In this document: piece by piece, positions 13,679 to 51,754 of the stretch
How the letters are laid out: every line of letters begins with the position of its first letter
Position numbering within the stretch: position 1 is the stretch's first letter
Assembly: GCA_015056055.1 (NCBI GenBank)
Contig: SVHC01000019.1
Coordinates: 1 to 55,748, forward strand
Length of the DNA: 55,748 nucleotides
Reading direction: 5' to 3'
From: Clostridiales bacterium
GTDB lineage: Bacteria > Bacillota > Clostridia > Christensenellales > Aristaeellaceae
The notes under the pieces: model-generated
Told to the model about the DNA's origin: nothing
Database searches by the model: none
What the model saw: only the letters and a program-made list of their open reading frames with translations
Program-made: the position numbers and the translations under genes

Positions 13679-13707
13679 ATTCTACCACGGATTTTGAAAA
13701 CTGGCAA
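13679..13707 (-). promoter_or_regulatory. Promoter of the alpha/beta-hydrolase gene
   Basis: On the minus strand: -35 TTGCCA (13702-13707), 17-nt spacer, extended -10 TGG-TAGAAT (-10 at 13679-13684). The leader to the start codon is about 30 nt. Confidence 0.65.
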
Positions 13708-13733
13708 TCGTTTAAGGGGAATTTTTCAATATA

Positions 13734-13861
13734 AAATACTGCCCCACAGAAATGTGGGGCAGTACGAAATCAGAGGCCGCGAAGCGACTGAAGGGATGAG
13801 GACAGGGCGCAAGCCCTCCGCAATCCCGGAACACTGCGCAAGCAAAGCGCAGGGCAATGCG
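13734..13861. repeat. 128-nt structured direct repeat, copy 1
   Basis: Contains, in order, the hairpin ACTGCCCCACA-GAAA-TGTGGGGCAGT, a GCCGCGAAGCG segment, the hairpin AGGGCGCAAGCCCT and the hairpin CTGCGCAAGCAAAGCGCAG. About 121 of 128 bases match copy 2, 183 bp away. No reading frame of interest. Confidence 0.85.
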
Positions 13862-13916
13862 TTAATGGAGGCCGCGAAGAGGCTGAAGTGGTGAGCACAC
13901 GAAGTGCGCAACCACG
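13862..13916. other. Spacer between the repeats, with its own hairpins
   Basis: Includes GTGGTGAGCACACGAAG followed by TGCGCAACCAC, an imperfect hairpin, and a GGAGGCCGCGAAGAGGCTG element resembling the GGCCGCGAAGCG segment of the repeats. It reads as a diverged partial unit. Confidence 0.5.
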
Positions 13917-14044
13917 AAATACTGCCCCACAGAAATGTGGGGCAGTACGGAATTAGAGGGCGCGAAGCGGCTGGAGGGATGAGGACAGGGCACAAGCCCT
14001 CCGCAATCCCGGAACACTGCGCAAGCAAAGCGCAGGGCAGTGCG
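13917..14044. repeat. 128-nt structured direct repeat, copy 2, abutting glnA
   Basis: Same series of hairpins as copy 1 with about seven substitutions, several of them transitions. It ends 3 nt before the glnA stop codon. The sequence CGAAATCAGAGG, which spans the glnA stop, also occurs inside copy 1 after its first hairpin and in altered form in copy 2, so the unit seems to have formed by duplication of the glnA 3' end. Confidence 0.85.
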
Positions 14045-14047
14045 AAA

Positions 14048-15472
14048 TCAGAGGTTATAATACTTATCAAACTCTGCCGGATGCGGGATGGAAGCCATAT
14101 CGCGGCATTCCTTGCGCTTGGTGGCGATGAAGTTTTTGAGCAGGATTTCGGGGAATACGCCGCCGGCGGTGAGGTAATCGTGATCGGCCTCGAGTGCATC
14201 GAGAGCGGCATCCAGCGAGGTGGGCAGACCCTTGAGCTTGCTCTTTTCCTCATCGGAGAGGTTATACAGATTCATATCGTACGGACCCCAGCCGTTCTCA
14301 TGCGGATCGATCTGGTTCTTGATGCCGTCGAGACCTGCCATGAGGATCGCTGCATAGCAGAAATAGGGGTTGCAGGTTGCATCGGGGTTGCGCAGTTCGA
14401 AGCGGCGCAGCTTGGGCTCCTTGGCATATGCCGGAATGCGGATAACGGCGCTGCGGTTGGAGGTGGCGTAGCCGACGGTTACGGGTGCTTCGAAGCCGGG
14501 AACCAGACGCTTGAAGGAGTTGGTGCTCGGGTTGGTCAGTGCGCACAGGGAAGCGATGTGCTTGAGCAGACCGCCCATGAAGTAGTGTGCGGTTTTGCTG
14601 AGGTTGGAATAGCCGTTATCATCTGAGAAGAGCGGTTCGCCGTCCTTGAGCAGCAGCATATGCACGTGCATACCGCTGCCGGCCTCGCCGTAAACGGGCT
14701 TGGGCATGAAGGTTGCGCTCTTGCCGTACTTGAGGGCGGTGTTGTGGATGATATACTTGATCATCATGGTAGCGTCCGCCATGGTGGACATCTTGCCCAG
14801 CTGGGGCTCGATTTCAAACTGACCGGAAGCGCCTACTTCGGGATGATGATATTTGATCGGGATGCCGGCTTCCTCCATCAGGAGGCACATTTCGCTGCGG
14901 CATTCGTAGGTGGGATCGTAGGGCTTGGCAACGTGATAAGCCTTCTGCTTGGGAATGACCAGACCCATACCGTCGGAATCGCTGTTCCAGTGTGCCTGAT
15001 TGGCGTCGATGGACATGCCGATGGCATTGGGCTGAACGCTCCAGCCGACCTGATCGAACAGATAGAATTCAAATTCCGGCAGAATCAGCATGGTATCGGC
15101 AATGCCCTGATCCTGCATGTATTTTTCGGCAGCGAGGACGATATTGCGCGGATACTGCGGCAGCGGACGATTTTCGGGGCTGTCGATGATCATGGCATTG
15201 CCGGTCATGGAGAGGGTGGGAATCTCGCAGAAGGGATCGATAACGGCGGTATCGGGATCGGGAATGAACACCATATCGCTCTTTTCGACCACGGCATAGC
15301 CATAGTTGGATGCATCGAAGCCGATGCCGTTCTTCATCGTGCTTTCGGAAAAATTCTTGGCGGGGATGGTGACGTGGCGGTACTGACCGTTGATATCAAC
15401 CATCTTGAAATCGACCATTTTGATGTCCTGCTCGCGGATCATCGCCATAATATCCTGTACGGTCTTGGGCAT
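14048..15472 (-). CDS. glnA: Type I glutamine synthetase
   Basis: A 474-residue cytosolic enzyme that makes glutamine from glutamate, ammonia and ATP. Typical GSI elements are visible: the N-terminal MVDFKMVDINGQ beta-grasp part, DPDT near residue 72, EFEFYLFD, the HHPEVGASGQFEIE metal-binding block, GSGMHVHM, NPSTNSFKRLVPGFEAP and RIPAYAKEPKLRRFELRNPD. The adenylylation-loop motif NLYNLS keeps the Tyr, and the C-terminus ends with HPAEFDKYYNL as in the longer GSI-beta forms; whether it is adenylylated here is unknown and no glnE is in the window. The single promoter has -35 TTGAAT and -10 TATAAT. The RBS is AGGAAG. Confidence 0.96.
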   Translation of the reverse strand: MPKTVQDIMAMIREQDIKMVDFKMVDINGQYRHVTIPAKNFSESTMKNGIGFDASNYGYAVVEKSDMVFIPDPDTAVIDPFCEIPTLSMTGNAMIIDSPENRPLPQYPRNIVLAAEKYMQDQGIADTMLILPEFEFYLFDQVGWSVQPNAIGMSIDANQAHWNSDSDGMGLVIPKQKAYHVAKPYDPTYECRSEMCLLMEEAGIPIKYHHPEVGASGQFEIEPQLGKMSTMADATMMIKYIIHNTALKYGKSATFMPKPVYGEAGSGMHVHMLLLKDGEPLFSDDNGYSNLSKTAHYFMGGLLKHIASLCALTNPSTNSFKRLVPGFEAPVTVGYATSNRSAVIRIPAYAKEPKLRRFELRNPDATCNPYFCYAAILMAGLDGIKNQIDPHENGWGPYDMNLYNLSDEEKSKLKGLPTSLDAALDALEADHDYLTAGGVFPEILLKNFIATKRKECRDMASIPHPAEFDKYYNL

Positions 15473-15524
15473 GGGAAGGCTTCCTTTCTATAATCAGTAT
15501 ATGCCGCAAATTTTGAGTGATATT

Positions 15525-15553
15525 ATTATATATCTGCCATATTAAGCATTCAA
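15525..15553 (-). promoter_or_regulatory. Sigma-A promoter of glnA
   Basis: On the minus strand: -35 TTGAAT (15548-15553), 17-nt spacer, -10 TATAAT (15525-15530). The leader is about 45 nt and contains the palindrome GGAAGGCTTCC just before the start codon. No clear GlnR or TnrA site was recognised. Confidence 0.75.
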
Positions 15554-15620
15554 GCGCAGCTGTCGAAATAACGGGGCGGAACACTTTTTTAATTTAAAAT
15601 TCGATTTAACTTATGATTAA

Positions 15621-15666
15621 CGAAAAAACTGTCACGCAAACCCGCTGAGCGGAAACTTATATATAG
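15621..15666 (+). promoter_or_regulatory. Probable ECF-type promoter of the sigma/DUF6273 operon
   Basis: Putative -35 TGTCAC (15630-15635), 16-nt spacer, putative -10 GAAACT (15652-15657), followed by TATATAG. The 16-mer at 15621-15636 matches the one at 19475-19490 at 13 positions, and both sites share GAGC(G/A)G(A/T)AACT at the same distance. This is not a sigma-A promoter. Self-activation by the sigma factor downstream is inferred. Confidence 0.6.
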
Positions 15667-15716
15667 AAGGAGGAAATACAGCCGTTTGCACGCGGCAAGA
15701 AAAAATTCGGGTAGCA

Positions 15717-15725
15717 TGGTACAAT
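15717..15725 (+). promoter_or_regulatory. Possible second, extended -10 promoter
   Basis: TGGTACAAT gives an extended -10 without a good -35 (AAGAAA at 17 nt). If used, it would give a basal transcript starting near 15732, ahead of the TTG start at 15763. Confidence 0.35.
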
Positions 15726-15762
15726 AAGATTGCGCAGTCTAAAGGAACAAGAGGGATTGACG

Positions 15763-16365
15763 TTGTTTAAGTGGAAGCTGTTTGGAAAACGGAAAGAAGC
15801 GTTTTCTGCGAAAGAGTCTGATTTGCATGAGCGGCTGAGACGGGAGCATGAGAAATTCATGTATGCATATGCGAGGCGGCTTTCGCGGTCGGATGCTGAG
15901 GTGCAGACGCTTATTTCGGACGCGTGGTACATACTGATGCGCAAGGAAGACGAACTGGAGGAGATCATAGATGATCCGGTACGCACGCGCAGCTATATCG
16001 CCCGCGTGATTCTCTATCAATCGAAGCGCATTCTGCGCGACAATGCAGTGCGCAGCAAATACGAGGAGCTGTATCGCCAGATCAATACGGACATCGGAAC
16101 CGAGCCGGCCGCCGGTGAAGCGGCGGAGCGCAGGATCCGGCATCGGGAATTTGTGCAGGCTATAGAAAAGCTGCCCACCCCGTTCCGGGAAGTGATTCTG
16201 ATGCGGTATTATGAGGGGCGGTCAAGCGAGGAAATCGCGGCGCAGCTGGGAATCGCGCCCGGGAGCGTGAATCAGTATGCAAAGCGTGCAAGAGAGAAGC
16301 TGAAGGTGATATTGCTCGAGAACCAAACTGTGGAAGAAGGATATGATTATGAACGAAAAATTTGA
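15763..16365 (+). CDS. RNA polymerase sigma factor, sigma-70 family, ECF-like
   Basis: A 200-residue sigma factor that should direct RNA polymerase to a special set of promoters. Residues ~27-95 correspond to region 2 (EHEKFMYAYARRL, then ARVILYQSKRILRDN), and residues ~130-185 to region 4 with the helix-turn-helix LPTPFREVILMRYYEG / SSEEIAAQLGIAPGSVNQ. Region 3 is absent, as in ECF types. The probable start is TTG at 15763, 6 nt after AGAGGGA; a TTG at 15730 lies too close to the -10. It overlaps the next gene by 17 bp, the usual sigma/anti-sigma coupling. An ECF-type promoter lies upstream and another in front of the second cassette. Confidence 0.88.
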   Translation: MFKWKLFGKRKEAFSAKESDLHERLRREHEKFMYAYARRLSRSDAEVQTLISDAWYILMRKEDELEEIIDDPVRTRSYIARVILYQSKRILRDNAVRSKYEELYRQINTDIGTEPAAGEAAERRIRHREFVQAIEKLPTPFREVILMRYYEGRSSEEIAAQLGIAPGSVNQYAKRAREKLKVILLENQTVEEGYDYERKI

Positions 16366-17377
16366 TCGCAAAACAGCGGCGCAGCTGAGAGAGGAGATAG
16401 CGGAACTGCAATTGGAACTCGCCTTCCGGGAAATGGAAGAGGAAGCGTATGCGCAGATCGCTTTCGAGGCTGAGAAGGATGAAAGTCTGGAGGAATGGAT
16501 GCGCAAAAACAGGCCGCAGCCTTTCTCTGAAGCAGACAAAGCCAAAATTCGGAAAAAAAGAAAGGAGCGAAAACAGATGTTTAAAGGGAATATGCCCGCG
16601 TATGCCTGGCGCGCCGTCGCCATGTGCATGGTATTTTTCCTGCTCGGTTCGGGTGTGGGCGGCGCGACTGTAGCCTATGTGCAAAAGCAGGCAGCGCCCC
16701 AAATCGAAAAGCGGGAAGGAATGTTCGGCGAATACATTACCTTCGGTTCATATGAACAGGATAACAATCTGGAAAACGGCGCGGAGCCCATTGAATGGCG
16801 CGTGCTGAAAAAGGAAGATGGCAAGGCGCTTGTGATCAGCGTGGACGCGCTGAAGCTTATGCAGTATCACAACACCATTGCCGAGGACAGCTCCGTTGCT
16901 TGGGAAACCTGGGATGTGCGCGCGTGGCTGAACGGGGAATTTTTGGAAACGGCTTTCACGGAGGAGGAACGGCTGAGAATTCCCACCGTAACGGTGTGGG
17001 CGGAATACGGACCTCAGAGCAAAGCGGAACCGGGAAACGATACGCAGGATAAGGTATTCCTTTTGAGCTTTGAAGAGGCGGATGAGTATCTGCCCGGCAA
17101 CAGTGCGCGGCAGTGCAAGCCGACGACATATGCGATTGCGGAATATGAAGCCGCAAACGGAAAAGCATGGGAGACAAACGAACCCTGGTATACCGACGCC
17201 GTTGAAGGAAACTGCTCCTGGTGGCTGCGCACGCCCGGTATGTTTGACGGCAGCGCGACCAATGTCCTGCGCAATGGCAGCCTGGCTTCGTTTACCAGAA
17301 TAACTTTGAACAATGTCGGCACGTCGGATTTCAATTACGGTGTGCGCCCGGCGATCTGGATCGATCTGGAACCGTAA
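16349..17377 (+). CDS. Membrane DUF6273 protein, probable anti-sigma factor/sensor
   Basis: A 342-residue single-pass protein. Residues 1-80 are charged and helical (coiled coil likely at 10-45, very basic at 64-76) and should be cytoplasmic. One membrane segment spans about 87-110. The outside part, residues ~125-342, is a DUF6273 domain: EWRVLKKEDGKALVIS, WDVRAWLNGEF, DKVFLLS, WWLRTPG and the final GVRPAIWIDLEP. The domain is uncharacterised and has the look of a C-type-lectin/SUMF-like fold. Overlap with the sigma gene and the topology make it a likely anti-sigma factor that senses an extracellular ligand, but it has no zinc-binding HxxxCxxC motif. ATG 16349 is chosen over 16343 for RBS spacing (GAAGAAGGA). 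Confidence 0.8.
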   Translation: MNEKFDRKTAAQLREEIAELQLELAFREMEEEAYAQIAFEAEKDESLEEWMRKNRPQPFSEADKAKIRKKRKERKQMFKGNMPAYAWRAVAMCMVFFLLGSGVGGATVAYVQKQAAPQIEKREGMFGEYITFGSYEQDNNLENGAEPIEWRVLKKEDGKALVISVDALKLMQYHNTIAEDSSVAWETWDVRAWLNGEFLETAFTEEERLRIPTVTVWAEYGPQSKAEPGNDTQDKVFLLSFEEADEYLPGNSARQCKPTTYAIAEYEAANGKAWETNEPWYTDAVEGNCSWWLRTPGMFDGSATNVLRNGSLASFTRITLNNVGTSDFNYGVRPAIWIDLEP

Positions 17378-17437
17378 AAATTCCAAATGCTTTTCGCATA
17401 TGCAAAGCATATCAATCATGAAAAGGAGGACGAAAAA

Positions 17438-19306
17438 ATGAAACGCACGCGAATTATGGCATGGATGCTTGCAATGGTTTTGCTGCTGGGATGCATGAGC
17501 ATTCCGGCAGGCGCGGACGAAGAGAGAAACCTGCTTTCCATCGTTGCTGTAGAAGGGGATACAATCTGGGTACATACGACCGAGGGTCTGGCTCCCTTTG
17601 ATGAAGAAGGACAGCAAACCGGAGAAGCCCTGTACCCCGGTGCGGACTGTTATGCCATCGGACCGGACGGACATATGTATTACGCTGTGGGCGGCGATGT
17701 TTTTGAATTCGACCGCGAAGGAAACGAAATCGACAAGTGGGAAACGGAGGCAGACCGCTTTTCCAAAATGCTGGCGAATGAAAAGTACATTGTTCTGATG
17801 TCCGATGGGCAGTACACGGTGATCAATGCCGATGCACATACGGTGGCAAGCGGAGTATCGGAAGAACTGTTTGACATCTGCCTGTGTGATGCGGAATCAT
17901 TCATGATTGCCGAGGACGGAATGCTGGCCAGATATGCGCGGGTGGACTTTGAAACGCTGGAAGTGATCGAGGCAAGGTTCAACGTTGCTTTCGAAGGCAT
18001 GGCTTTCAGCAGTCCGGACGAAGGATTTTATCTGTATGACGGAGGAGACGTCTATCATATGGATTTCGCGGACGGAGAAGAGCAAATCTACCGCTGCCTG
18101 CTGGATGTGCAGCATGTTTGGGATCTCCGGCTGATCGGGGAGAATATTTACGCCATTGCGGATGATGGTCTGCGCGTATATCCCCGCGAGAATGAGATGG
18201 AAGCCACAAAAGTTCTGAAGATCCACGGCGCAGATTTTTATAACAACAGGAAGCTCAAAAAAGCGATCGCGATATTTACCCAGCTCTATCCGGAATACAG
18301 GGTGGAACTCACCGGCGATGTTGTAAAAAAGAGCGTGCATGACGAACTGATGACGACTACAGCCAAATATGACATTCTGCTTCTGGCCCCGGATGATACG
18401 AATTACAGACTTTCCGGCCTGATGATGGATCTTTCGGACTGTGAGCAGCTCATGGAAAATCTGAATGGGTATATCGATATGCCTTTCCTGTGGGAAAGCG
18501 ACGGAAGCCTTTACGGCATCCCTATGAGAGTGGATCCCTGCGGATTCGGCGTAAAGGCGAACCTGTGGAGGAGAATGAAGGATACGTTCCCGGATGAATG
18601 GACGATGGAAGATCTGTATTCCTACGTGGATCTGGCGAACGAAAGGGGCGTTAAGCTGGTTTCCACGGATTATCGCTGGTCGGCGCTGCGTCAGCAGTAT
18701 GAAACGGGATTCTGTGATCTTATGGGCGGCGTTATGGAATATGAAAACGACACCTTCCGCTCGCTGGTATCCCTCTGGAAACAGCTGGATGCAGAAGGGC
18801 TGATCGAATACAGCGTGGTCGGCACCGGAAACGCGCTGTTCTCGTACGGTTCCATGTCCATCACCCAGACCATGAACAAATGGAATCACGTCAGCATCGG
18901 AATGCCGCTTCTGAATGGGGAGGAAGTAACGCCGATTGAGTTGTATGGATTCTACGTTTACAAGTACAGTGAAAATACCGATGCGGCGGTGAAATTCCTG
19001 GAAATCTACACTTCTCCCGAGGTTCAGATCATGGCCGAAGGACCGGAAGGAGCGTTCCTGAAGGGTGTAAAGATGGAAGAATATCCCAATTCCACATACT
19101 GGACGCTTGGTATTGACTGCATGCCTACCGAGGAAGAAGTGGAAAAATGGGAGCATTTCCTCAGAACCGGCAGACTGGTCGAAAGGATCCCCGCATATGA
19201 AGAGGAGGTCAAGGATGCTGTGATCAGCCTTTTGACCGATGCAATGACTGCGGACGAATTTGTCACATGGGTTCAGGCGCAGGCGGATGGGCTGCTGGAG
19301 AAGTAG
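17438..19306 (+). CDS. Secreted propeller-like/solute-binding fusion protein, paralogue 1
   Basis: A 622-residue exported protein. The signal segment MLAMVLLLGCMSIPAGA could be cut by signal peptidase I after AGA, or act as a lipobox (LLGC). Residues ~30-255 contain repeated short beta blades with YAIGPDGHMYYAVGGDVFEFD and similar text, resembling a beta-propeller. From ~258 to the end lies a family 1 extracellular solute-binding domain (FTQLYPEYRVEL, FLWESDGSLYGIPMRV, GVMEYENDTFRSLVSLW, NTDAAVKFLEIYTSPEVQ). RBS AAAGGAGGA precedes ATG 17438. It closes the sigma operon and is followed by two terminators. It shares its architecture with the protein at 20427. Ligand unknown; oligosaccharide or cell-wall glycan are guesses. 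Confidence 0.82.
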   Translation: MKRTRIMAWMLAMVLLLGCMSIPAGADEERNLLSIVAVEGDTIWVHTTEGLAPFDEEGQQTGEALYPGADCYAIGPDGHMYYAVGGDVFEFDREGNEIDKWETEADRFSKMLANEKYIVLMSDGQYTVINADAHTVASGVSEELFDICLCDAESFMIAEDGMLARYARVDFETLEVIEARFNVAFEGMAFSSPDEGFYLYDGGDVYHMDFADGEEQIYRCLLDVQHVWDLRLIGENIYAIADDGLRVYPRENEMEATKVLKIHGADFYNNRKLKKAIAIFTQLYPEYRVELTGDVVKKSVHDELMTTTAKYDILLLAPDDTNYRLSGLMMDLSDCEQLMENLNGYIDMPFLWESDGSLYGIPMRVDPCGFGVKANLWRRMKDTFPDEWTMEDLYSYVDLANERGVKLVSTDYRWSALRQQYETGFCDLMGGVMEYENDTFRSLVSLWKQLDAEGLIEYSVVGTGNALFSYGSMSITQTMNKWNHVSIGMPLLNGEEVTPIELYGFYVYKYSENTDAAVKFLEIYTSPEVQIMAEGPEGAFLKGVKMEEYPNSTYWTLGIDCMPTEEEVEKWEHFLRTGRLVERIPAYEEEVKDAVISLLTDAMTADEFVTWVQAQADGLLEK

Positions 19307-19345
19307 AAATATATCGGAGTTGCGTCTGTAAACGTCTATAAACGT

Positions 19346-19378
19346 ATGGCGGGGAAGGCTACTTCCCTGCCATTTTGT
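19346..19378 (+). terminator. Terminator after the first cassette
   Basis: ATGGCGGGGAAG-GCTA-CTTCCCTGCCAT (one mismatch) followed by TTTTG. It ends the sigma-DUF6273-binding protein operon. Confidence 0.75.
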
Positions 19379-19409
19379 CAGGTGTGCCGGAATATCACAG
19401 GCGATGTAT

Positions 19410-19444
19410 AAATGTCCGCAAGCAAATGCGTGCGGGCATTTTTG
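19410..19444 (+). terminator. Second terminator after the first cassette
   Basis: AAATGTCCGCA pairs with TGCGGGCATTT (one mismatch) around AGCAAATGCG, followed by TTTT. A similar CCGCA/TGCGG hairpin follows the second cassette at 23169-23194. Confidence 0.7.
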
Positions 19445-19474
19445 CAGCAAAGAAATGATTTAATAAAAAAATAA

Positions 19475-19517
19475 CGTAAAAAGTGTCAGGAAATGATGCC
19501 GAGCAGTAACTATATAG
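19475..19517 (+). promoter_or_regulatory. Second ECF-type promoter, upstream of cassette 2
   Basis: Putative -35 TGTCAG (19484-19489), 16-nt spacer, putative -10 GTAACT (19506-19511), then ATATAG. Alignment with 15621-15666 has no gaps from CG(A/T)AAAAA(C/G)TGTCA(C/G)G through GAGC(G/A)G(A/T)AACT. The first reading frame downstream is the 26-codon one at 19530. Confidence 0.6.
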
Positions 19518-19529
19518 TGAAAGGAAAAA

Positions 19530-19610
19530 ATGGCAAGATGGAATGAGAATAAGGAGATATGTCACGGCTTGCGGCGGCGGAGAAGATTGATTTCTATTAG
19601 TGGGGATTAA
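19530..19610 (+). CDS. Possible 26-residue small protein
   Basis: ATG 19530 follows AAAGGA at 5-nt spacing, immediately after the ECF-type promoter, and the frame ends at TAA 19608. The peptide has an Arg-rich core (GLRRRRRLIS) and no recognisable motif. It could be a leader peptide, a small regulator, or chance. Nothing else codes between 19307 and 20004. Confidence 0.25.
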   Translation: MARWNENKEICHGLRRRRRLISISGD

Positions 19611-19746
19611 AAAAGAAAATCGGAAAAAGTCACGGGGACTGCTTTGAATGCAGTGAAACGTGGCGGCTTAGTTATGTTTTGTATATATGCACTATATTTT
19701 GATCTTATGATTGCAACATAGTGCTAAAAATATTTTATAAATATTA

Positions 19747-19775
19747 TTGACAAATTGAGTTTGATGTGTTATATT
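19747..19775 (+). promoter_or_regulatory. Sigma-A promoter of the second cassette
   Basis: -35 TTGACA (19747-19752), 17-nt spacer, -10 TATATT (19770-19775). The start of transcription would be near 19782, leaving a leader of about 220 nt before ATG 20005 that holds the stems described at 19792-19890. Confidence 0.75.
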
Positions 19776-19791
19776 GGATACAGAAAGCAAT

Positions 19792-19890
19792 CGGTGCAAT
19801 GAGAGAAATTCCTGCACCGCGGCGCTTTCCGGTCGGTGATCCACCGGCGATTGGGGTATAGCCCCGCGCACTCCGAAAGGAACAGCGGCG
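19792..19890 (+). ncRNA. Structured 5' leader, candidate regulatory RNA
   Basis: Within the long leader several stems can be drawn: CGGTGCA/TGCACCG (19792-19819, 14-nt loop), GCGC (19822-19825) with GCGC (19866-19869) closing a junction that contains CGGTG-ATC-CACCG (19834-19846) and GGGG-TATAG-CCCC (19853-19865), then CTCCGAAAGGA. The GC content is far above the AT-rich flanks. The part ACCGGCGATTGG / AGCCCCGCG recalls pieces of the FMN riboswitch, but the full consensus is not present. It may be a riboswitch-like or attenuator element; the class is unknown. Confidence 0.4.
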
Positions 19891-20004
19891 AAACGGCAAA
19901 AAATGTTGCACAGAACTTACTCGTCTAACTTTCTCGATTGGCACAACGACCTTAGTTTCCGTAATGTAATTATTGCGGCTGAATCAAGAAGGGAGAGTAT
20001 ACCA

Positions 20005-20334
20005 ATGAAAAGAAAGCTGATTTCCATGTTGCTTGTTGCGGTTCTTCTTACCACGGTTGCAGTTCCGGCCTTGGCGAGTATATATTATCCTAATCGATCT
20101 TGTCCGGTGTGCGGAATAAAAGGTCAATGGTATAGATGCTCGGGAATGAAGCTGAATCACGGTTATTATAATCATACAGTGGATGGATCGCTTTGTCTCT
20201 ATACCGAGTCATACTATATCACATATGTTGACTGTGGTTATGGATGTGGCACCAACACAAACGGAACTCACTATGAGTGTGAAACACACCAAATTTGCTT
20301 TGGTGGACAGCCGCAATATGACTGCAGGGTATGA
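20005..20334 (+). CDS. Small secreted cysteine-rich protein
   Basis: A 109-residue protein I do not recognise. Residues 1-27 form a signal peptide (MKRKLISMLLVAVLLTTVAVPALA, cleavage after ALA; written here in parts: basic MKRK, hydrophobic core, ALA-S). The mature ~82 residues hold nine cysteines, including CPVCG near the start, VDCGYGCG in the middle and ECETHQIC near the end, which suggests a zinc-ribbon-like or disulfide-bonded fold. RBS GGGAGAG precedes ATG 20005. It is the first clear gene after the structured leader and lies 92 bp before the second binding protein, so it may be part of that system. Confidence 0.7.
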   Translation: MKRKLISMLLVAVLLTTVAVPALASIYYPNRSCPVCGIKGQWYRCSGMKLNHGYYNHTVDGSLCLYTESYYITYVDCGYGCGTNTNGTHYECETHQICFGGQPQYDCRV

Positions 20335-20426
20335 GATATATAGAGGAGAAATAGTAACTAATATTTAGCTGAGCAATTCGCCGCTGTTTCCGATAATCAA
20401 TCAAATGTAATGAAAGGGGATAAGAA

Positions 20427-22286
20427 ATGGAGAATTTAAGAAGGACAACGTGGCTGCTTACGGTGATTATGCTACTGTGCAGCATAGCATTTCCGGCAGC
20501 TGCGGAAGAGGAGATGCAGTTTCTTTCCATCGTTGCGGTTGAAGATGAAACCGTCTGGATTCATACTTCGCATGGTCTTGTCCCCTTTGATGAAGCGGGG
20601 CGGCAAGCTGGCACGGCTCTGTATCCGGGTGCCGATTGCTATGCCATCGGCCCGGATGGGCACATCTATTACAGCATTGAAGGCGATATTTTTGAATACG
20701 ATCGTGATGGAACCGAACTCGATAAGTGGGAGACGCCCATAGATAATTTCACCAAGATTTTGGTGAATGACACATATATAATTATCATGGGTGATGAGGA
20801 ATATGGCGCGATTCATAAGGAAAATCACAGGCTGAAAAGCGGTGTTGTGGAAGGCATGCAGGACATTGGATTCTACAACGAAAATTCATTTGTACTTTTG
20901 CAGGAAGGAATAGCATCGCTGCTTGTGCAGATCGATTGCAATACGCTGGAAGATATTGCGCTTGCGCCGCTTTCCCACTATGATGGCATTGCATTCAGTT
21001 CCGAGCATGAAGGGTGCTATGTGTATTTCAAAGACAGTATTCATTTTTTGCGTTCGCTTGATGAAACGGTGAATACTTATATGACGTTACAAAGCGACGC
21101 TTATATCTATGATATGTGCATTGGAGAGGGGACAATTTATATTCTTACGGATGAGGGGCTTGAAATTCATGCACGCAAGGCAGAGGTTGCTAAAACCAAG
21201 GTGCTCACGATTTATGCCGGACTGATGTGGAGCAATACTACGACATTTCAGAAGGCAATACAAATTTTTACGCAGAGGCATCCGGAATATGAGGTGAAAT
21301 TGACCGATTCGGTATTGGCAGAAAAGTTGAATACCGATTTGATGGCAAATGCACCGGGATATGATCTGATGGTCTTAGAAGGAAATAACAGTGCCATGGT
21401 TAAAGCCTCCGGAATTCTGGCAGAGCTTTCAGAGAATAAAGTGATTACGGAAAATATTGATCAGTATTTGGAAATGCCCTTTTTGTGGGAAAGTGATGGG
21501 CGATTGTATGGCGTGCCGGTGCATGTTTCTCCTTTTGGTTTCAAGATTTCAAAGGCCTTGTATGAGCAGGCTGGACTTGAGATCGAGCGGGATTGGACAT
21601 GGGAGGATTTTTATGCACTTAAAGATGCGGCATGGGAAAACGGCTTAATGCTTACCTCCGGGGACAGATACTGGCAAGTATTTCGTCGGCAATATGAAAG
21701 CGTATATTGCGATTACATAATGGGTGAGGCCAATTATGAAACGGATGCATTCCGTATGTTGGTGACACTATGGAGCAATCTTGAAGCGGAGGAAATGATT
21801 GCGCCGCTGGCAAATTCCAATATACTCATGCAGTATGACAGCATGGCTCCGGTGCTGCAAAACGATGCAAAAAGCAGAGGGACGATATTTATCGGTATGC
21901 CTACGCTGGATGGAGAATATGCAACTCCCATTTATATGTCTGCGCTTTATGCCAATCGGCATAGCGAACATGCGGATGCAGCGATTGAATTTCTTGAAAT
22001 CTATTCTTCGGCCGAAGTTCAGTATGAAAGTCAAAATATGATTTTTTTGCCGGAACTTGAAAACTATGCAGAGTATAAATGGTGGGAAATGCTGGATACA
22101 GTGCCCACGGAAGAGAACATGGAATTGTGGAAGCATTTTCTGAGTACCGGAAAGTTGTTTGAACGAAATATGGAATTTGACCAAAATATAGCCCAGTTGG
22201 TAAATGCACTTCTTGCGGAGCGGATGACGATAGATGAGTTTATTTCGGAGGTACAGGAACGGGCGGATTTGATGGTTGGCGAATAG
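20427..22286 (+). CDS. Secreted propeller-like/solute-binding fusion protein, paralogue 2
   Basis: A 619-residue exported protein with signal peptide ending AFPAAA before EEE. It has the same two-part architecture as the protein at 17438: residues ~28-255 propeller-like (LSIVAVEDETVWIHTSHGL, ADCYAIGPDGHIYYS) and from ~256 a family 1 solute-binding domain (FTQRHPEYEVKL, MPFLWESDGRLYGVPV, DAAIEFLEIYSSAEVQ). Nearly every block aligns with paralogue 1, so they arose by duplication, but codon use is clearly more AT-rich here (many TTT, GAT, AAT, ATT). RBS AAAGGGG precedes ATG 20427. It probably delivers a ligand to the permeases encoded at 23365-24977. Confidence 0.8.
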   Translation: MENLRRTTWLLTVIMLLCSIAFPAAAEEEMQFLSIVAVEDETVWIHTSHGLVPFDEAGRQAGTALYPGADCYAIGPDGHIYYSIEGDIFEYDRDGTELDKWETPIDNFTKILVNDTYIIIMGDEEYGAIHKENHRLKSGVVEGMQDIGFYNENSFVLLQEGIASLLVQIDCNTLEDIALAPLSHYDGIAFSSEHEGCYVYFKDSIHFLRSLDETVNTYMTLQSDAYIYDMCIGEGTIYILTDEGLEIHARKAEVAKTKVLTIYAGLMWSNTTTFQKAIQIFTQRHPEYEVKLTDSVLAEKLNTDLMANAPGYDLMVLEGNNSAMVKASGILAELSENKVITENIDQYLEMPFLWESDGRLYGVPVHVSPFGFKISKALYEQAGLEIERDWTWEDFYALKDAAWENGLMLTSGDRYWQVFRRQYESVYCDYIMGEANYETDAFRMLVTLWSNLEAEEMIAPLANSNILMQYDSMAPVLQNDAKSRGTIFIGMPTLDGEYATPIYMSALYANRHSEHADAAIEFLEIYSSAEVQYESQNMIFLPELENYAEYKWWEMLDTVPTEENMELWKHFLSTGKLFERNMEFDQNIAQLVNALLAERMTIDEFISEVQERADLMVGE

Positions 22287-22352
22287 TGCCTCGGTTGCGA
22301 GGCCGCTATATAGTAAGAATGGTGTTTTCGGCAAAAGAAAGGAGAGGCCGGT

Positions 22353-23147
22353 ATGAGATACAATGTAATAACAGCATGGATTATGGTAGTGATATTGAGC
22401 TTGTGTGGTGTCGTTTTACCGGCGAATGCAGAAACAGCTTTTTCGGAAACGATTCGCCAAGCACCTCCGGAGATCACAAGTTTGCCAGGGCGATTTGGAA
22501 AATATATCATATTTGGCTCCTATGAGCAGGACAACGACCTTGAAAATGGTCCGGAACCAATTGAATGGCGTGTGCTGGAAGTAAAGGATGGAAAAGCTCT
22601 TGTAGTAAGTCTATATGCGCTGGAACTGATGCAATATCATGGTATCATTGCAGCGGATGAGTCTGTAACGTGGGAAACGTGGGACATCCGCGCGTGGCTG
22701 AATGGAGAATTTATGGAGGCTGCTTTTACTGCAGCGGAAAAACTCAGAATTCCTGATGTTACGGTGCGGGCGCAGTGGCATCGATATTCGAATGCCACAT
22801 TGGGAAATCATACGCAGGATCATATCTTTTTGCTTAGTCTTACAGAGATAGAGGAATATTGGCCGCAAAAGGGGTCCCGAAAATGTAGTCCGACCGCTTA
22901 TGCAATTGCAAACTATGAAATCAGAAATGGGGAGGAATGGCCTGATACCGAAGTGGGATATAAAGCTGGTGATAAAGGAAACTGCAACTGGTGGGTACGT
23001 ACACCCGGTGAATTTGATGGGAGTGCATCATGGATAAACCGTAATGGGACGATCGCTTTTTTAAATTATCAAAATTTGTTACAGCTCGATACCCGTAATT
23101 TTGACTATGGCATCCGTCCCGCAATGTGGATTGATTTGGAACCATAG
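22353..23147 (+). CDS. Secreted DUF6273 protein
   Basis: A 264-residue protein with a signal peptide (cleavage after PANA) and one DUF6273 domain, residues ~45-264. It is a paralogue of the outside part of the protein at 16349: both carry the FGSYEQDN(N/D)LENG block, EWRVLE, WDIRAWLNGEF, HIFLLSLTE, NWWVRTPG and the final GIRPAMWIDLEP. It lacks the cytoplasmic anti-sigma-like region and the membrane helix, so it is a free or loosely bound version of the sensor domain. RBS GGAGAGG. A perfect GCCTCG-GTTG-CGAGGC hairpin (22288-22303) separates it from the binding protein. Possibly a decoy, co-receptor or processing partner; this is inference. Confidence 0.78.
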   Translation: MRYNVITAWIMVVILSLCGVVLPANAETAFSETIRQAPPEITSLPGRFGKYIIFGSYEQDNDLENGPEPIEWRVLEVKDGKALVVSLYALELMQYHGIIAADESVTWETWDIRAWLNGEFMEAAFTAAEKLRIPDVTVRAQWHRYSNATLGNHTQDHIFLLSLTEIEEYWPQKGSRKCSPTAYAIANYEIRNGEEWPDTEVGYKAGDKGNCNWWVRTPGEFDGSASWINRNGTIAFLNYQNLLQLDTRNFDYGIRPAMWIDLEP

Positions 23148-23168
23148 GATATCTGAGACAATTATCTT

Positions 23169-23194
23169 TGCCCGCAGGTGAATGCTTGCGGGCA
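23169..23194 (+). terminator. Hairpin after the second cassette
   Basis: TGCCCGCA-GGTGAATGCT-TGCGGGCA, a perfect 8-bp stem followed by a weak T tract (TTCGTT). Probably a terminator separating cassette 2 from the permease operon. Confidence 0.6.
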
Positions 23195-23213
23195 TTCGTT
23201 GCTGGCGTTATGT

Positions 23214-23266
23214 CATTTCAGACGCCCAAAACGACATTTCAGACGCCAAAATGTACTTTTCAGACA
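23214..23266 (+). repeat. Three 21-bp-spaced direct repeats upstream of the permease operon
   Basis: TTTCAGAC occurs at 23216-23223, 23237-23244 and 23258-23265, each exactly 21 bp apart; the first two share the longer CATTTCAGACGCC. Two helical turns between sites puts them on one face of DNA, just upstream of the -10 at 23297. This looks like an activator binding array. The spacing is like that of LytTR-type regulators, but no such gene is in the window. Confidence 0.65.
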
Positions 23267-23270
23267 GAAA

Positions 23271-23302
23271 TTGTTTAATGTTAAGGAAATGTGTGTTATA
23301 AT
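23271..23302 (+). promoter_or_regulatory. Promoter of the permease operon
   Basis: -10 TATAAT (23297-23302) is perfect. The -35 is poor: TTGTTT (23271-23276) is 20 nt away and TTTAAT (23274-23279) is at 17 nt. A weak -35 next to a direct-repeat array is typical of an activated promoter. Confidence 0.55.
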
Positions 23303-23364
23303 ATAGGTGTAATAAGAACCGGGTAAACGGGCGATAAAAATACAGATCAAGGAGGAAGGTGCGT

Positions 23365-24159
23365 ATGAAAAAGACAAACAGAAGGCTTTTAATGCTGGCT
23401 GCGCCGTTTGTGGCGGGATTTCTGTTGTTCTATGTTCTGCCGCTGTTCCGCTCGATCTGGTATTCGCTGGTGAATAACACGGTGGAACAGGAGTTTGTGG
23501 GACTGAAAAATTACATCGACACGATGAGGAACGAAAATTTTCTCCTGAGCGTGAAGAACACGATGGAAATTCTGGTTCTGGGCGTGCCGCCGGTGGTGCT
23601 GTTTTCCCTTCTGTGCGCGCTGGTGGTGCAGCATATCGGCGAAAAGATGCCGCTGCTGCGCATTGCGCTGGTGCTGCCGATGCTTTTGCCCAGCGCTTCG
23701 GTTGCAGGTGTTTTTGAAAAGATGGGCATTGAAAGCTCGCGTCTTACGCTGATTGTGATCTACATATGGAAAAATGCGGGTTTTCTGATGCTGATATTCC
23801 TGGCGGCGCTTTCGACCGTGCCGAAGGAATTGCATGAAGCGTTCGCACTGGACAGCGCAAGCCGGGTCAAGGCATTCTGGTACATTACGCTGCCCCTCAT
23901 CATGGGAACTATGCTTTTCACGGTGATGCTGGCGATCGCGTATAATCTGCGCCTGTTCCGCGAGGCATATCTGCTCTATGGCGCATATCCGGATAAGACG
24001 CTGTATCTGATGCAGCACTACATGAACAATCACTTCAACAAGCTCAATTATCAGAAGCTTACAACGGCTGCAACGCTGTTCCTCGTTCTGCTGTTGGCGA
24101 TCATAGGCTGTTTTATGGGGCTTGTGCGCAAATTTGGCAAGGGGAGTGATCTGCGGTGA
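23365..24159 (+). CDS. ABC sugar-type permease, MalF/UgpA family
   Basis: A 264-residue membrane permease with six predicted helices (first at 8-28, LLMLAAPFVAGFLLFYVLP). The cytoplasmic EAA loop that contacts the ATPase reads EAFALDSASRVKAFWYITLP near residues 155-175. ATG 23365 is chosen because GGAGGA (23351-23356) is 8 nt upstream; a GTG at 23359 is too close. Its partner begins inside its stop codon. MalF-type permeases import sugars or oligosaccharides captured by family 1 binding proteins such as those at 17438 and 20427. No ATPase gene follows, so a shared MsmX-type ATPase encoded elsewhere is expected. Confidence 0.9.
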   Translation: MKKTNRRLLMLAAPFVAGFLLFYVLPLFRSIWYSLVNNTVEQEFVGLKNYIDTMRNENFLLSVKNTMEILVLGVPPVVLFSLLCALVVQHIGEKMPLLRIALVLPMLLPSASVAGVFEKMGIESSRLTLIVIYIWKNAGFLMLIFLAALSTVPKELHEAFALDSASRVKAFWYITLPLIMGTMLFTVMLAIAYNLRLFREAYLLYGAYPDKTLYLMQHYMNNHFNKLNYQKLTTAATLFLVLLLAIIGCFMGLVRKFGKGSDLR

Positions 24160-24977
24160 AGAAAGTGAAACGGATTCTTCTGATGGCAATCAGCACCGCT
24201 ATGATTATTACCTTCTTCCTGCCGCTGGTCATGACGGTAATCTGTTCGTTTATGAACTCGGCGGAGCTGGCGGTTGTCTTTGGCGATGAGCATCCCTTCC
24301 GCTGGATTCCCTATCAGGTTTCGGTAAGCGGATATTTTCAGGTTTTGTTTGCCAATGAAACCTACCTTGCCACATTCTGGAATTCCATGCTGATTGCAAT
24401 CGCATCGGTGGCGCTGCAGGTGCTTTCCTCCCTGATTGTGGGTTATACGCTGGTTCGCGGAAAATTCCGGGGAAGAACCGCACTGTTTTATCTCTACATG
24501 ATCGTTATGCTGATTCCCTTTCAGGTCACGCTTTTGCCTACCTACATTCTTGCAAAGGATACGGGAATCTACAATACGTGGCTGGCTCTGGTTCTGCCGG
24601 GCGGATTCGCGGCATTGGGCGTGTTTCTGATGCGGCAGTTTATCCTGAGTTTTCCGGATGATATTCTGGAGGCGGCGAAGCTGGATACCGATTCCAACCT
24701 GAGGATCATTTTTGAAATCGTGGCTCCGAATGTCAAGGGCGGTTTGATCGCCGTTGCGGTACTCGCATTCGCCGAGAACTGGAACATGATCGAGCAGCCG
24801 CTGATTCTGCTGGAAAATGAATGGCTGTATCCCTTGGCGCTGAAACTGCATGAACTGCCGGAAAGCCAGTATGCAGTGCGGTTTGCCGGGTCGGTACTGT
24901 ATATGCTCCCGTCCATACTTCTCTTCTTCCTGTTCGAAAACGAACTGGTGGACGGCGCAAAGCACATGAAACTATAA
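24156..24977 (+). CDS. ABC sugar-type permease, MalG family
   Basis: A 273-residue permease with six helices and the MalG-type EAA loop (EAAKLDTDSNLRIIFEIVAP near residues 170-190). The N-terminal FFLPLVMTVICSFMNS is typical. Translation starts at GTG 24156, overlapping the TGA of the previous gene (GTGA), with GGGGAG upstream, so synthesis of both subunits is coupled. The pair forms the channel of an importer. The long outside segment after helix 1 (AELAVVFGDEHPFRWIPY) is longer than that of many MalG proteins and could contact the fused binding proteins. Confidence 0.9.
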   Translation: MKKVKRILLMAISTAMIITFFLPLVMTVICSFMNSAELAVVFGDEHPFRWIPYQVSVSGYFQVLFANETYLATFWNSMLIAIASVALQVLSSLIVGYTLVRGKFRGRTALFYLYMIVMLIPFQVTLLPTYILAKDTGIYNTWLALVLPGGFAALGVFLMRQFILSFPDDILEAAKLDTDSNLRIIFEIVAPNVKGGLIAVAVLAFAENWNMIEQPLILLENEWLYPLALKLHELPESQYAVRFAGSVLYMLPSILLFFLFENELVDGAKHMKL

Positions 24978-24998
24978 TTGTACATGGGAGGCGATAGA

Positions 24999-26129
24999 AT
25001 GTCTAAAAAGAGAACTGTGATAATTACATCCATCTTTTTCTCGGTAATGATCCTTTTGACCTTCTGTTCGCGAACCGTGTACAGGAGCATGCTTCCGAAG
25101 GTCAATGTGACGAATCCGTTCGGCGGTACGCTCACCTACAATATGGGTACGAGTGATTTCGAACTGTACACGGAAAATGTGCTGTACGAGTACATTCCGT
25201 TCCGGCTGAACGGCAGCCTGTCTGTGCTGGAAACGTACGCAGAGGAAGGCAAAAGAATCGCTGCGGGCGATGCACTGGTGAAATTCTATCCGCCCGACGG
25301 AGAGGCGCTCTTGAAAACGGCCCGCGAAACAACGGAATCGGCGCGGATTTCCGTGCGCGTATGGGAAGAGCGCATGGCCGATGCATGGGATTCGCTGGAT
25401 GCGCGCATGCAGGCAGCGACGGATGCAAAGACCTTTGCCGATTTGCAGGATGAGCAGGATATGCTGAAGGACGGTATCGTAGACGGTACTTCCATTGACC
25501 GGTACTATGATGCACTCAGCGCGGCGGAGGAGCAGGAGGCTTTCCTTCAGGCACTTTCGGATTCCGATTGGATTCTGTACGCGCAGCACAGCGGCGTGGT
25601 CTGCGAAACGGTTTTGACGGCGGGCGGAAGCTATTCCGGTATGTCCCGCATCTGCACGACGGCGCATCCCGATTATCCCGTGCATGTGCGCGGTACGGTT
25701 GCCGGGCTTCCCGATATGTCCGAGGGGAAATGGTCCTGCGATGTGACGGCATATGCCCGCGGCGGCAGGATGAGCAGAATCGATACCTACGAGATTGATA
25801 AAAACGTCATCAGCTTCTGCCTGGATGACTATAATCTGGATGCGGCGGATTTGCTGTCGATAGCGATGGATATTGAGTCCCCGTATCAGAGATGCCTCGT
25901 TGCAAACGATATGATTCAGGGCGGCGGTCAGCTCTATGTCCTTGTGACTACGACCGGCGCATGGGGTAAAAATGAGTATAAGGTAGACCTCATAGAGGTG
26001 GAAACCGGCGCAAGCGACAGGAAAAATACCGTGATCAAATCCGAACTTGATCGCGGTGTAAAGATCATTACCGGCTGGACCGAACCCATTTACGCCGGAA
26101 TGACCGTCCTTCCGGCAGGTTACGAATAA
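24999..26129 (+). CDS. Membrane-fusion-like (HlyD-type) extracytoplasmic protein
   Basis: A 376-residue protein with one N-terminal membrane segment (residues ~7-28, VIITSIFFSVMILLTFCS) and an outside part. Residues ~60-105 resemble the first half of a lipoyl domain (VLETYAEEGKRIAAGDALVKF), ~105-185 are helical and coiled-coil-like, and ~190-225 the second lipoyl half (ILYAQHSGVVCETVLTAGG). This is the layout of membrane-fusion proteins that serve as adaptors for exporters. It follows the MalG permease by 21 bp (RBS GGGAGGCG) and ends at a strong terminator. An adaptor downstream of importer permeases is unusual. It may dock the large binding proteins; that is inference. Confidence 0.65.
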   Translation: MSKKRTVIITSIFFSVMILLTFCSRTVYRSMLPKVNVTNPFGGTLTYNMGTSDFELYTENVLYEYIPFRLNGSLSVLETYAEEGKRIAAGDALVKFYPPDGEALLKTARETTESARISVRVWEERMADAWDSLDARMQAATDAKTFADLQDEQDMLKDGIVDGTSIDRYYDALSAAEEQEAFLQALSDSDWILYAQHSGVVCETVLTAGGSYSGMSRICTTAHPDYPVHVRGTVAGLPDMSEGKWSCDVTAYARGGRMSRIDTYEIDKNVISFCLDDYNLDAADLLSIAMDIESPYQRCLVANDMIQGGGQLYVLVTTTGAWGKNEYKVDLIEVETGASDRKNTVIKSELDRGVKIITGWTEPIYAGMTVLPAGYE

Positions 26130-26152
26130 TTCCGGGCTGTGAAAAATACGAA

Positions 26153-26196
26153 ATCCCCACCGTTTGTATTCAGACAAACGGTGGGGATAGTTTTTT
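26153..26196. terminator. Intrinsic terminator
   Basis: Perfect 15-bp stem ATCCCCACCGTTTGT / ACAAACGGTGGGGAT with a 6-nt loop (26153-26188) and T run 26191-26196. It lies between the plus-strand permease operon and the convergent aldolase gene and can serve both directions in part. Confidence 0.92.
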
Positions 26197-26212
26197 GCTG
26201 TGTGCATATGGT

Positions 26213-51554: not shown

Positions 51555-51582
51555 AAGACGTCCTCCTTGACAAGTTGTTAAA

Positions 51583-51611
51583 ATTATATCATATAAATTT
51601 TCTGGAAACAA
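51583..51611 (-). promoter_or_regulatory. Promoter of the giant LRR gene
   Basis: On the minus strand: -35 TTGTTT (51606-51611), 17-nt spacer, extended -10 TGA-TATAAT (-10 at 51583-51588). Short leader with a strong RBS. Confidence 0.75.
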
Positions 51612-51754
51612 GAAGATGACTGCGAATAAATAAGCAAACACCTAAAAGGAAATATGGTATCTTGGAGAACGGCAAGGCAGATTCCAAGGGGCATTTTGTC
51701 TGGAGGATCCTCTTACGGCGGATTTGCGACTGGTGCTTATGCTGCAGTATATAT

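What the first reader, a model, noticed from the sequence alone, without database searches (positions are those of the whole stretch)
15621..19306. ECF-like sigma, DUF6273 membrane sensor and propeller-binding protein as one operon
The sigma gene overlaps by 17 bp a gene for a single-pass protein whose outside part is the uncharacterised DUF6273 domain, followed by a secreted propeller/solute-binding fusion. This looks like a signal system in which a binding protein or its ligand is read by DUF6273, which controls a sigma factor. DUF6273 as an anti-sigma sensor is, to my knowledge, not an established function.
Basis: partly seen in the sequence, partly recalled or inferred. Interest (0 to 1): 0.82.

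Follow-up and report, generated by a model that had tools for sequence, protein, structure and literature searches.

The report
Sigma switch with swapped surface sensor
A bacterium appears to carry a membrane-anchored brake on a gene-switching (sigma) protein whose outer sensing part was replaced by an uncharacterised surface domain, and related bacteria attach solute-binding proteins to the same kind of switch, which suggests a mix-and-match way to sense the outside world.

Summary
The anti-sigma idea gains support: the protein's inner segment and membrane helix are homologous (hhalign 95-98%) to those of membrane proteins behind sigma genes in other genera. Those proteins, and two paralogues here, carry DUF4367 outside; in the window DUF6273 replaced it. 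A shared upstream element (5 copies in 2.83 Mb, control 0) precedes two sigma genes and three propeller-SBP units, suggesting an autoregulated regulon. In 11 of 309 family genomes an anti-sigma-like N-terminus is fused to a propeller-SBP behind a sigma gene; once the SBP is fused to a BlaR1-type protease. Binding proteins thus repeatedly look like inputs to transmembrane regulators. What DUF6273 binds is unknown; structure jobs did not finish. New variant of a known kind.

The parts
15618..15668 (+). Conserved upstream (promoter-like) element of the sigma operon; pattern match 15630-15657
   Evidence: One of 5 genome copies at up to 3 mismatches, reversed-pattern control 0; aligned with the other copies
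15763..16365 (+). ECF-type sigma factor, 200 aa, TTG start
   Evidence: TIGR02937 77.1 bits; Pfam region 4 E 1.7e-17; paralogues 55% and 46%
16349..17377 (+). Anti-sigma candidate: cytoplasmic segment (about residues 1-85), one TM helix (about 88-111), outer DUF6273 (158-339)
   Evidence: PF19789 E 1.2e-22; hydropathy; N-terminal/TM module homologous to those of sigma-linked DUF4367 proteins
17438..19306 (+). SBP1: secreted, N-terminal propeller-like domain plus solute-binding domain, 622 aa
   Evidence: SBP_bac_8 E 7.7e-5, under cut-off; 41% identical to SBP2
19484..19511 (+). Second copy of the upstream element, ahead of the second gene unit
   Evidence: Exact match to the pattern, of which it was one source; 92% over 51 nt with the element of the C40 sigma gene
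20008..20334 (+). Small secreted Cys-rich protein 'x' (inner start chosen by eye; listed ORF is 19903-20334)
   Evidence: ORF; homologue before a propeller-SBP in another genus, L251, 34%; a similar-looking protein in L281 (by eye)
20427..22286 (+). SBP2: paralogue of SBP1
   Evidence: SBP_bac_1 58 bits
22353..23147 (+). Secreted DUF6273 protein without cytoplasmic part
   Evidence: PF19789 E 4.9e-21; 57% identical to the membrane protein
23216..23267 (+). Array of 21-bp repeats (TTTCAGACGCCAAAATGTA type), second regulatory element
   Evidence: Exact unit at 23237-23255; neighbours from the alignments
23365..24159 (+). ABC permease, MalF/UgpA-like
   Evidence: PF00528 E 6.1e-14; UgpA 55.6 bits, under cut-off
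24156..24977 (+). ABC permease, MalG-like
   Evidence: PF00528 E 2.1e-12
24996..26129 (+). Membrane-anchored HlyD/adaptor-like protein
   Evidence: Weak EmrA and RND_mfp matches, E about 0.002, under cut-off; no Pfam match; homologues beside the same permeases in L244, L245, L249

Best explanation
A transmembrane sigma/anti-sigma switch. Step 1 (supported by homology): the inner segment of the DUF6273 protein holds the adjacent ECF-type sigma at the membrane. Step 2 (inferred): an outside event on the DUF6273 domain, most likely docking of a ligand-loaded propeller-SBP or of the glycan it handles, leads to loss of the anti-sigma, probably by two-step proteolysis as in RsiV/RsgI. Step 3 (suggested by shared DNA elements): the freed sigma transcribes its own operon, so SBP1 rises with it, and other propeller-SBP units that carry the same element. 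The present form arose when the outer DUF4367 usual in this sigma clade was replaced by a DUF6273 taken from the secreted DUF6273 proteins of the same genome, several of which are encoded next to propeller-SBPs.
For: Module: own-genome paralogues C62 and C40 pair a 55%/46% sigma with a protein matching residues 1-115 (46%/34%) but with DUF4367 outside. A profile of the three modules hit 6 of 251 family genomes; 7 of its 8 hits (3 own, 4 of 5 others) lie directly behind a sigma gene. hhalign: 98.1%, E 8e-14 to 8 sigma-linked modules, 4 of which that profile had itself found; 95.2%, E 2.6e-8 to the other 4 alone. DUF4367 proteins: 20 of 24 have a sigma gene within 300 bp upstream by script; two of the misses have one in other calls (32, 66). 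Sigma tree (28 rows I chose): window+C62+C40 100/99, inside a 13-row clade 100/98 whose other 12 partners are DUF4367-type. DUF6273 tree (37 rows): the three sigma-linked DUF6273 domains fall in three places within the own-genome set. Element: 5 copies, control 0, 78-524 nt upstream of genes of this set. SBP as input: 12 matches with the N-terminus in 11 of 309 genomes; 11 of the 12 have a sigma gene directly upstream, the twelfth starts at a contig end. L051: sigma gene, then TM-DUF6273-DUF6273-SBP in one protein.
Against: No curated anti-sigma domain was recognised in residues 1-80. No sigma/DUF6273 pair outside this genome in the sample (0 of 121 ORFs in 79 loci). The genus mate G001 has neither the module nor a propeller-SBP match. 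The anti-sigma-like modules of the SBP fusions are not detectably homologous to this one's relatives (hhalign 3.8%), so the fusions support the principle, not this protein. DUF4367 also occurs in 2 of 14 control genomes, both archaeal, so it is not a mark of anti-sigma factors by itself. The element pattern was built from four of the five copies it finds; the C62 sigma has only a diverged copy that the scan missed. By eye no -35/-10 assignment fits standard ECF spacing. No interaction, fold or expression data.
Confidence: 0.66

Rival explanations
1. Same sigma/anti-sigma pair, but DUF6273 senses a surface glycan or envelope state directly; SBP1 and the other propeller-SBPs are only target genes and take no part in sensing.
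For: DUF6273 is reported as C-type-lectin-like in phage receptor-binding proteins (PMC10743442, passages). RsgI anti-sigma factors of C. thermocellum bind polysaccharides with their outer modules (PMC4711584, passages). The element places SBPs downstream of the sigma.
Against: The fusions in which SBP and anti-sigma-like N-terminus are one protein, and DUF6273-DUF6273-SBP in L051, point to SBP as part of the input.
Confidence: 0.24
2. The permeases and SBPs form a working solute importer with a shared ATPase encoded elsewhere, and the sigma responds to transport rather than to ligand binding.
For: Two BPD_transp_1 permeases lie downstream in the window. In 13 of 13 other-genus loci read, matches to both permeases are present, in 12 of them straight after the SBP (in L244 other genes lie between).
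Against: No ATPase gene was seen between SBP and permeases in those loci (by inspection of the called genes). The window's permeases are separated from the sigma operon and carry the other regulatory element.
Confidence: 0.2
3. The DUF6273 protein is just a co-expressed membrane-anchored surface protein; the sigma has another regulator.
For: No recognised anti-sigma domain; sigma/DUF6273 pairing not seen elsewhere in the sample.
Against: Homologous N-terminal/TM modules behind sigma genes in other genera and in two own-genome paralogues; 17-bp overlap.
Confidence: 0.06
4. The shared upstream element is an operator or a remnant of segmental duplication, not a sigma-dependent promoter, so the proposed regulon is wrong.
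For: No canonical ECF -35/-10 spacing was found by eye; nearly identical pairs (C9 sigma/C68 SBP; C9 unit 2/C40 sigma) could reflect copying.
Against: In the BLAST of upstream regions the shared blocks are 45 and 51 nt and the genes they precede differ in type within each pair. A fifth copy, found by the scan, lay upstream of another propeller-SBP.
Confidence: 0.2

Closest known systems
SigI/RsgI systems of Clostridium thermocellum (PMC4711584, PMC6056542: passages; PMC12203970: abstract and outline)
   Same: Several paralogous sigma/anti-sigma pairs in one genome; conserved inner module with exchangeable outer binding modules; autoregulation; sigma-specific promoter variants before unlinked genes for surface or secreted proteins. 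In the window's genome the last two are inferred from sequence only.
   Different: Sigma is ECF-type here; no RsgI N-terminal domain found; outer domain is DUF6273 (DUF4367 or propeller-SBP in relatives), and the candidate targets are binding proteins, not cellulosome enzymes.
ECF sigma/RsiV-RsiP type systems of Bacillus (PMC8844934: passages; PMC4183432: abstract start in a listing)
   Same: ECF sigma, single-pass anti-sigma, outside domain that receives the signal; in SigP a separate surface protein (PbpP) is the sensor.
   Different: No DUF4179 match here; signal and proteases unknown.
DUF6273 domains in phage tentaclins and gut-bacterial proteins (PMC10743442, PMC11792537, PMC12402451, PMC13432834, PMC9145396: passages)
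   Same: Same Pfam domain on secreted, surface or phage proteins; modelled C-type lectin fold in PMC10743442.
   Different: None of the passages seen places DUF6273 on a sigma-linked membrane protein.
BlaI/BlaR1 (peptidase M56) sensors
   Same: In G070 the same propeller-SBP/permease module is fused to an M56 sensor beside a BlaI-type repressor.
   Different: A different transducer; the only full-length match listed in 309 genomes.

Membership tests
ECF-type sigma factors | Sigma-70 regions 2 and 4 without region 3 | tested here: met
   TIGR02937 77.1 bits over cut-off 42.9; region 4 E 1.7e-17; region 2 20.8 bits, under its cut-off 24; region 3 only E 0.37. Region 2 is divergent.
Membrane anti-sigma factors | Encoded directly after and overlapping the sigma gene | tested here: met
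   17-bp overlap
Membrane anti-sigma factors | Single-pass, N-terminus inside | tested here: met
   Hydropathy, charge distribution; prediction only
Membrane anti-sigma factors | Inner segment homologous to that of other sigma-linked membrane proteins | tested here: met
Membrane anti-sigma factors | Recognised anti-sigma domain by curated model | tested here: not met
   No Pfam match at E up to 1 and no fitting NCBIfam match at E up to 0.1 in residues 1-80
Membrane anti-sigma factors | Binds and inhibits its sigma | not testable with these tools
RsgI family | RsgI N-terminal domain | tested here: not met
   No such Pfam match at E up to 1
DUF6273 (PF19789) | Score over gathering cut-off | tested here: met
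   81 bits against 23.5
C-type-lectin-like fold | Fold of the outer domain | not tested
No PDB sequence match at E up to 1
ABC solute importer | SBP plus two permeases | tested here: met
   in the window they are spread over stretches with separate regulatory elements
ABC solute importer | ATPase in the cluster | tested here: not met
   None among the genes read in 15700-26200 of the window, by inspection of the ORF lists; a shared ATPase elsewhere was not looked for

The most novel reading that the evidence does not exclude
A portable outside-sensing cassette (propeller-like/solute-binding protein with two ABC-type permeases, sometimes an adaptor and a lectin-like DUF6273) has been plugged several times independently into unrelated transmembrane regulators: at least two ECF sigma/anti-sigma lineages and one BlaR1-type protease sensor. 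Binding proteins thus become the ligand-reading ectodomain, or partner, of the regulator, and DUF6273 is a docking or glycan-reading head that can replace DUF4367.
Probability: 0.45. Interest if true: 0.76.

Novelty: new variant of a known kind. Interest (0 to 1): 0.63.

Why it matters
The signal of most sigma/anti-sigma pairs is unknown (general knowledge, not from a call). Here the same outer parts recur in different regulators, so the input can be guessed from the parts: a solute-binding protein. If right, it gives DUF6273, DUF4367 and orphan secreted binding proteins a testable role, and shows how new extracellular sensors are made by swapping outer domains onto a kept sigma-binding module.

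Tried and rejected
Conserved sigma/DUF6273 pairing across genomes: looked for and not found. PF19789 matches occur in 174 of 251 family genomes (0 of 14 control genomes). I fetched 80 stretches around hits listed there; 79 held DUF6273 ORFs, 121 in all, and none had a sigma ORF within 4 kb upstream on the same strand. The hits come from the listed, best-scoring part of the search and some ORFs are nested frames, so rarer or weaker pairs could be missed.

A genome-contig scan with the sigma alignment gave 3 weak loci (not used). A viral scan with the DUF6273 part found nothing. Rfam found nothing in 15000-26500, and a structured-looking leader at 19775-19935 is not special (z -1.07). G062 hit of the module profile: no sigma gene beside it, taken as chance. 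That the 21-bp repeats might be IS21-like ends is a recalled idea that I did not test directly; against it, 10 of 12 places lie upstream of genes or units of this set. A standard ECF -35/-10 reading of the element was tried by eye and does not fit. Common ancestry of the two kinds of anti-sigma module was tested and not supported. M56/SBP fusion as a frequent alternative: only G070 matched over its full length among 309 genomes (two candidates scored per genome). Class-wide survey with the fusion profile: own genome plus 3 others of 391, SBP part only. Papers: in the listings of ten full-text searches I saw no paper on sigma-linked DUF6273, DUF4367 or anti-sigma/SBP fusions; only papers under open licences are held.
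Full report
WHAT IS THERE. The three genes are as described. The sigma gene most likely starts at TTG 15763, which aligns with the starts of two paralogues. It overlaps the next gene, ATG 16349, by 17 bp. That protein has an inner hydrophilic segment, one membrane helix at about residues 88-111 and an outer DUF6273 (158-339, E 1.2e-22). The third gene (17438-19306) encodes a secreted protein with an N-terminal repeat-rich, propeller-like part and a solute-binding part. The propeller label is not confirmed: it rests on motifs seen by eye and weak Pfam hits in a relative. On the same strand follow a small secreted Cys-rich protein, a second propeller-SBP (41% identical), a secreted DUF6273 protein (57% identical to the membrane protein where they align), two ABC permeases and an adaptor-like protein (weak matches under cut-off).

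ANTI-SIGMA ROLE. The own genome has two close sigma paralogues, C62 (55%) and C40 (46%). In both, the next gene matches residues 1-115 of the window's DUF6273 protein (46% and 34%), but its outer domain is DUF4367 (E 1.6e-7 and 7.3e-8, over the cut-off). A profile of only the three N-terminal/TM modules hit 6 of 251 family genomes. Of its 8 hits, 3 are the own ones and 4 of the 5 others overlap or abut a sigma gene; the fifth (G062) has none. An alignment of 8 sigma-linked modules from DUF4367 proteins matches ours with probability 98.1% over 111 columns; 4 of the 8 had been found by our own profile, and the other 4 alone still give 95.2%, E 2.6e-8. DUF4367 in 61 relatives: 24 matches, of which 20 have a sigma gene within 300 bp upstream by script; of the four misses, two (G031 C47, G019 C82) have the sigma in other calls and two (L331, L336) were not resolved. 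DUF4367 is also found in 2 of 14 control genomes, both archaeal, so the domain alone does not make an anti-sigma factor. In a tree of 28 sigma factors that I chose, the window's sits with C62 and C40 (100/99) inside a 13-row clade (100/98). The other 12 rows have DUF4367-type partners: Pfam for those; by BLAST to the own DUF4367 only for L068, L069, L070 and L072, the last over 28 residues. So the inner module is kept and the outer sensor was most likely swapped from DUF4367 to DUF6273. This is strong evidence for an anti-sigma role, though binding is not shown and no curated anti-sigma model matches.

ORIGIN OF THE OUTER DOMAIN. The own genome has 11 DUF6273 matches. In a 37-row tree (11 own, 26 of the best-scoring from other genomes) the own ones group together (80/48; 99/84 without the TPR protein), and the three sigma-linked ones (window; two in C39) fall in three separate places among the secreted ones. 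The window's is next to the secreted DUF6273 proteins of C68 and of the window's second unit (85/83) (two rows have very long branches and the bootstrap had not settled). This reads as recruitment of a local secreted domain, at least twice. DUF6273 and propeller-SBP are neighbours at C68, C33, C79 and in the window, DUF6273 is fused to a propeller-like part at C7, and is combined with an SBP domain at C39, where a different ECF sigma gene is followed by one protein with TM, two DUF6273 and SBP.

REGULON. Comparing upstream regions gave a block shared by the window sigma operon and the C68 SBP (91% over 45 nt), and by the C40 sigma and the window's second unit (92% over 51 nt). The 28-nt pattern built from these four finds five places in 2.83 Mb at up to 3 mismatches (control 0). 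The fifth, with 2 mismatches, lies upstream of another propeller-SBP at C60 that I had not seen before. Distances to the start codons are 78-524 nt. The C62 sigma has a diverged copy that the scan did not find and that shows only in the alignment. A second element, arrays of 21-bp repeats ahead of what looks by eye like a sigma-70-type promoter, was found at 12 places (20 matches; control 2). Ten are upstream of propeller-like, SBP, DUF6273 or permease genes of this set (one of these, at C5, leads with a gene that is propeller-like by eye only and is followed by a propeller-SBP); the exceptions are C63 and a single one-mismatch match inside a gene at C76. The own genome has 12 propeller-domain genes: four lie in units led by scanned copies of the first element (C9 two, C68, C60), two behind the diverged copy (C62), and six in units led by the repeats (C33, C79, C7 two, C5 two). 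For the window's second unit a good sigma-70-like promoter (19747-19775) lies between element and genes, so its control is less sure. Autoregulation plus control of other binding-protein genes is my inference from these positions.

BINDING PROTEINS AS INPUT. Searching 251 genomes with SBP2 gave matches in 13 others, and I read one locus from each. All 13 have matches to both permeases, 12 straight after the SBP. Five encode, directly behind a sigma gene, one protein with a short N-terminus, a TM helix at about 43-53 and a propeller-SBP, followed by two permeases. A profile of these five searched the 309 family genomes held: matches in 19 genomes, own included (three candidates scored per genome, so a lower bound). 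Twelve matches in 11 genomes include the N-terminus; two of them are cut at contig ends further on, and five are the profile's own rows. In 11 of these 12 a sigma gene lies directly upstream; the twelfth begins 33 bases from a contig end. The searches were by SBP and by the fusion protein, so the sigma neighbours were not selected for. Two more loci have a sigma/DUF4367 pair beside a separate SBP-permease-adaptor set (L249) or after permeases and adaptor (L244). One locus (L247) has a sigma gene 0.9 kb upstream of a secreted SBP. L245 has a BlaI-type repressor (E 4.3e-24) and a BlaR1 M56 protein (E 6.1e-34) fused to the propeller-SBP, the only full-length match in 309 genomes. L251 shows no regulator upstream on the held stretch; L248, L250 and L256 are cut by contig ends, and the fusion profile also hit G172 C26, a contig end that carries the N-terminal half of such a fusion behind a sigma gene. 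The 8 fusion-linked sigma factors in the tree lie in another clade (100/98) together with 6 others and the C39 sigma, and their N-terminal modules are not detectably homologous to the DUF4367-type modules, so the coupling arose more than once.

HOW IT PROBABLY WORKS. Shown or well supported: sigma; membrane protein with a sigma-linked inner module; outer DUF6273; shared upstream elements. Inferred: inhibition of the sigma by the inner module; signal through DUF6273 by docking of a propeller-SBP or its glycan; proteolytic release; positive feedback on SBP1. C. thermocellum SigI/RsgI is the closest functional model (PMC4711584 and PMC6056542 passages, PMC12203970 abstract): paralogous pairs, exchangeable outer carbohydrate-binding modules, autoregulation and paralogue-specific promoters.

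LIMITS. The genome and its relatives are unnamed; that the family looks like Clostridia is recalled from domain distributions and was not tested. The DUF6273 neighbour survey is a sample of high-scoring hits. Literature absence refers to the ten searches named in Tried and rejected.

Noticed in passing
23216-23267; also own-genome C5, C7, C8, C28, C33, C60, C63, C79: Arrays of 21-bp repeats (TTTCAGACGCCAAAATGTA type) ahead of sigma-70-like promoters (by eye), at 10 of 12 places upstream of genes or units of this set; the binding factor is unknown.
   Followed up: partly
L241:2049-2090 (own-genome C63): One copy of the repeat array stands before genes that look like an NfeD/SPFH-type membrane-protein operon (by eye), the exception to the rule.
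   Followed up: no
L245:5576-8861: A BlaI-type repressor beside a BlaR1 M56 protease sensor whose outer part is a propeller-SBP, followed by two permeases: a beta-lactam-type sensor apparently turned to a solute.
   Followed up: partly
20008-20334; L251:6774-7121; L281:86-433: Small secreted Cys-rich proteins recur just before propeller-SBP genes in other genera (L281 by eye).
   Followed up: no
about 13694-14030: Two near-copies of a stretch of roughly 120 bp, seen as nearly the same peptide in ORFs 13694-13894 and 13904-14626, at the 3' side of a glutamine-synthetase-like gene (by eye).
   Followed up: no
44298-51641 (-): A 2447-aa secreted-looking protein with long internal repeats resembling leucine-rich BspA-type repeats (by eye).
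   Followed up: no
L053:5163-5633 and L043:9710-10123: Similar-looking small secreted proteins follow two of the sigma/DUF4367 pairs of this genome (by eye).
   Followed up: no
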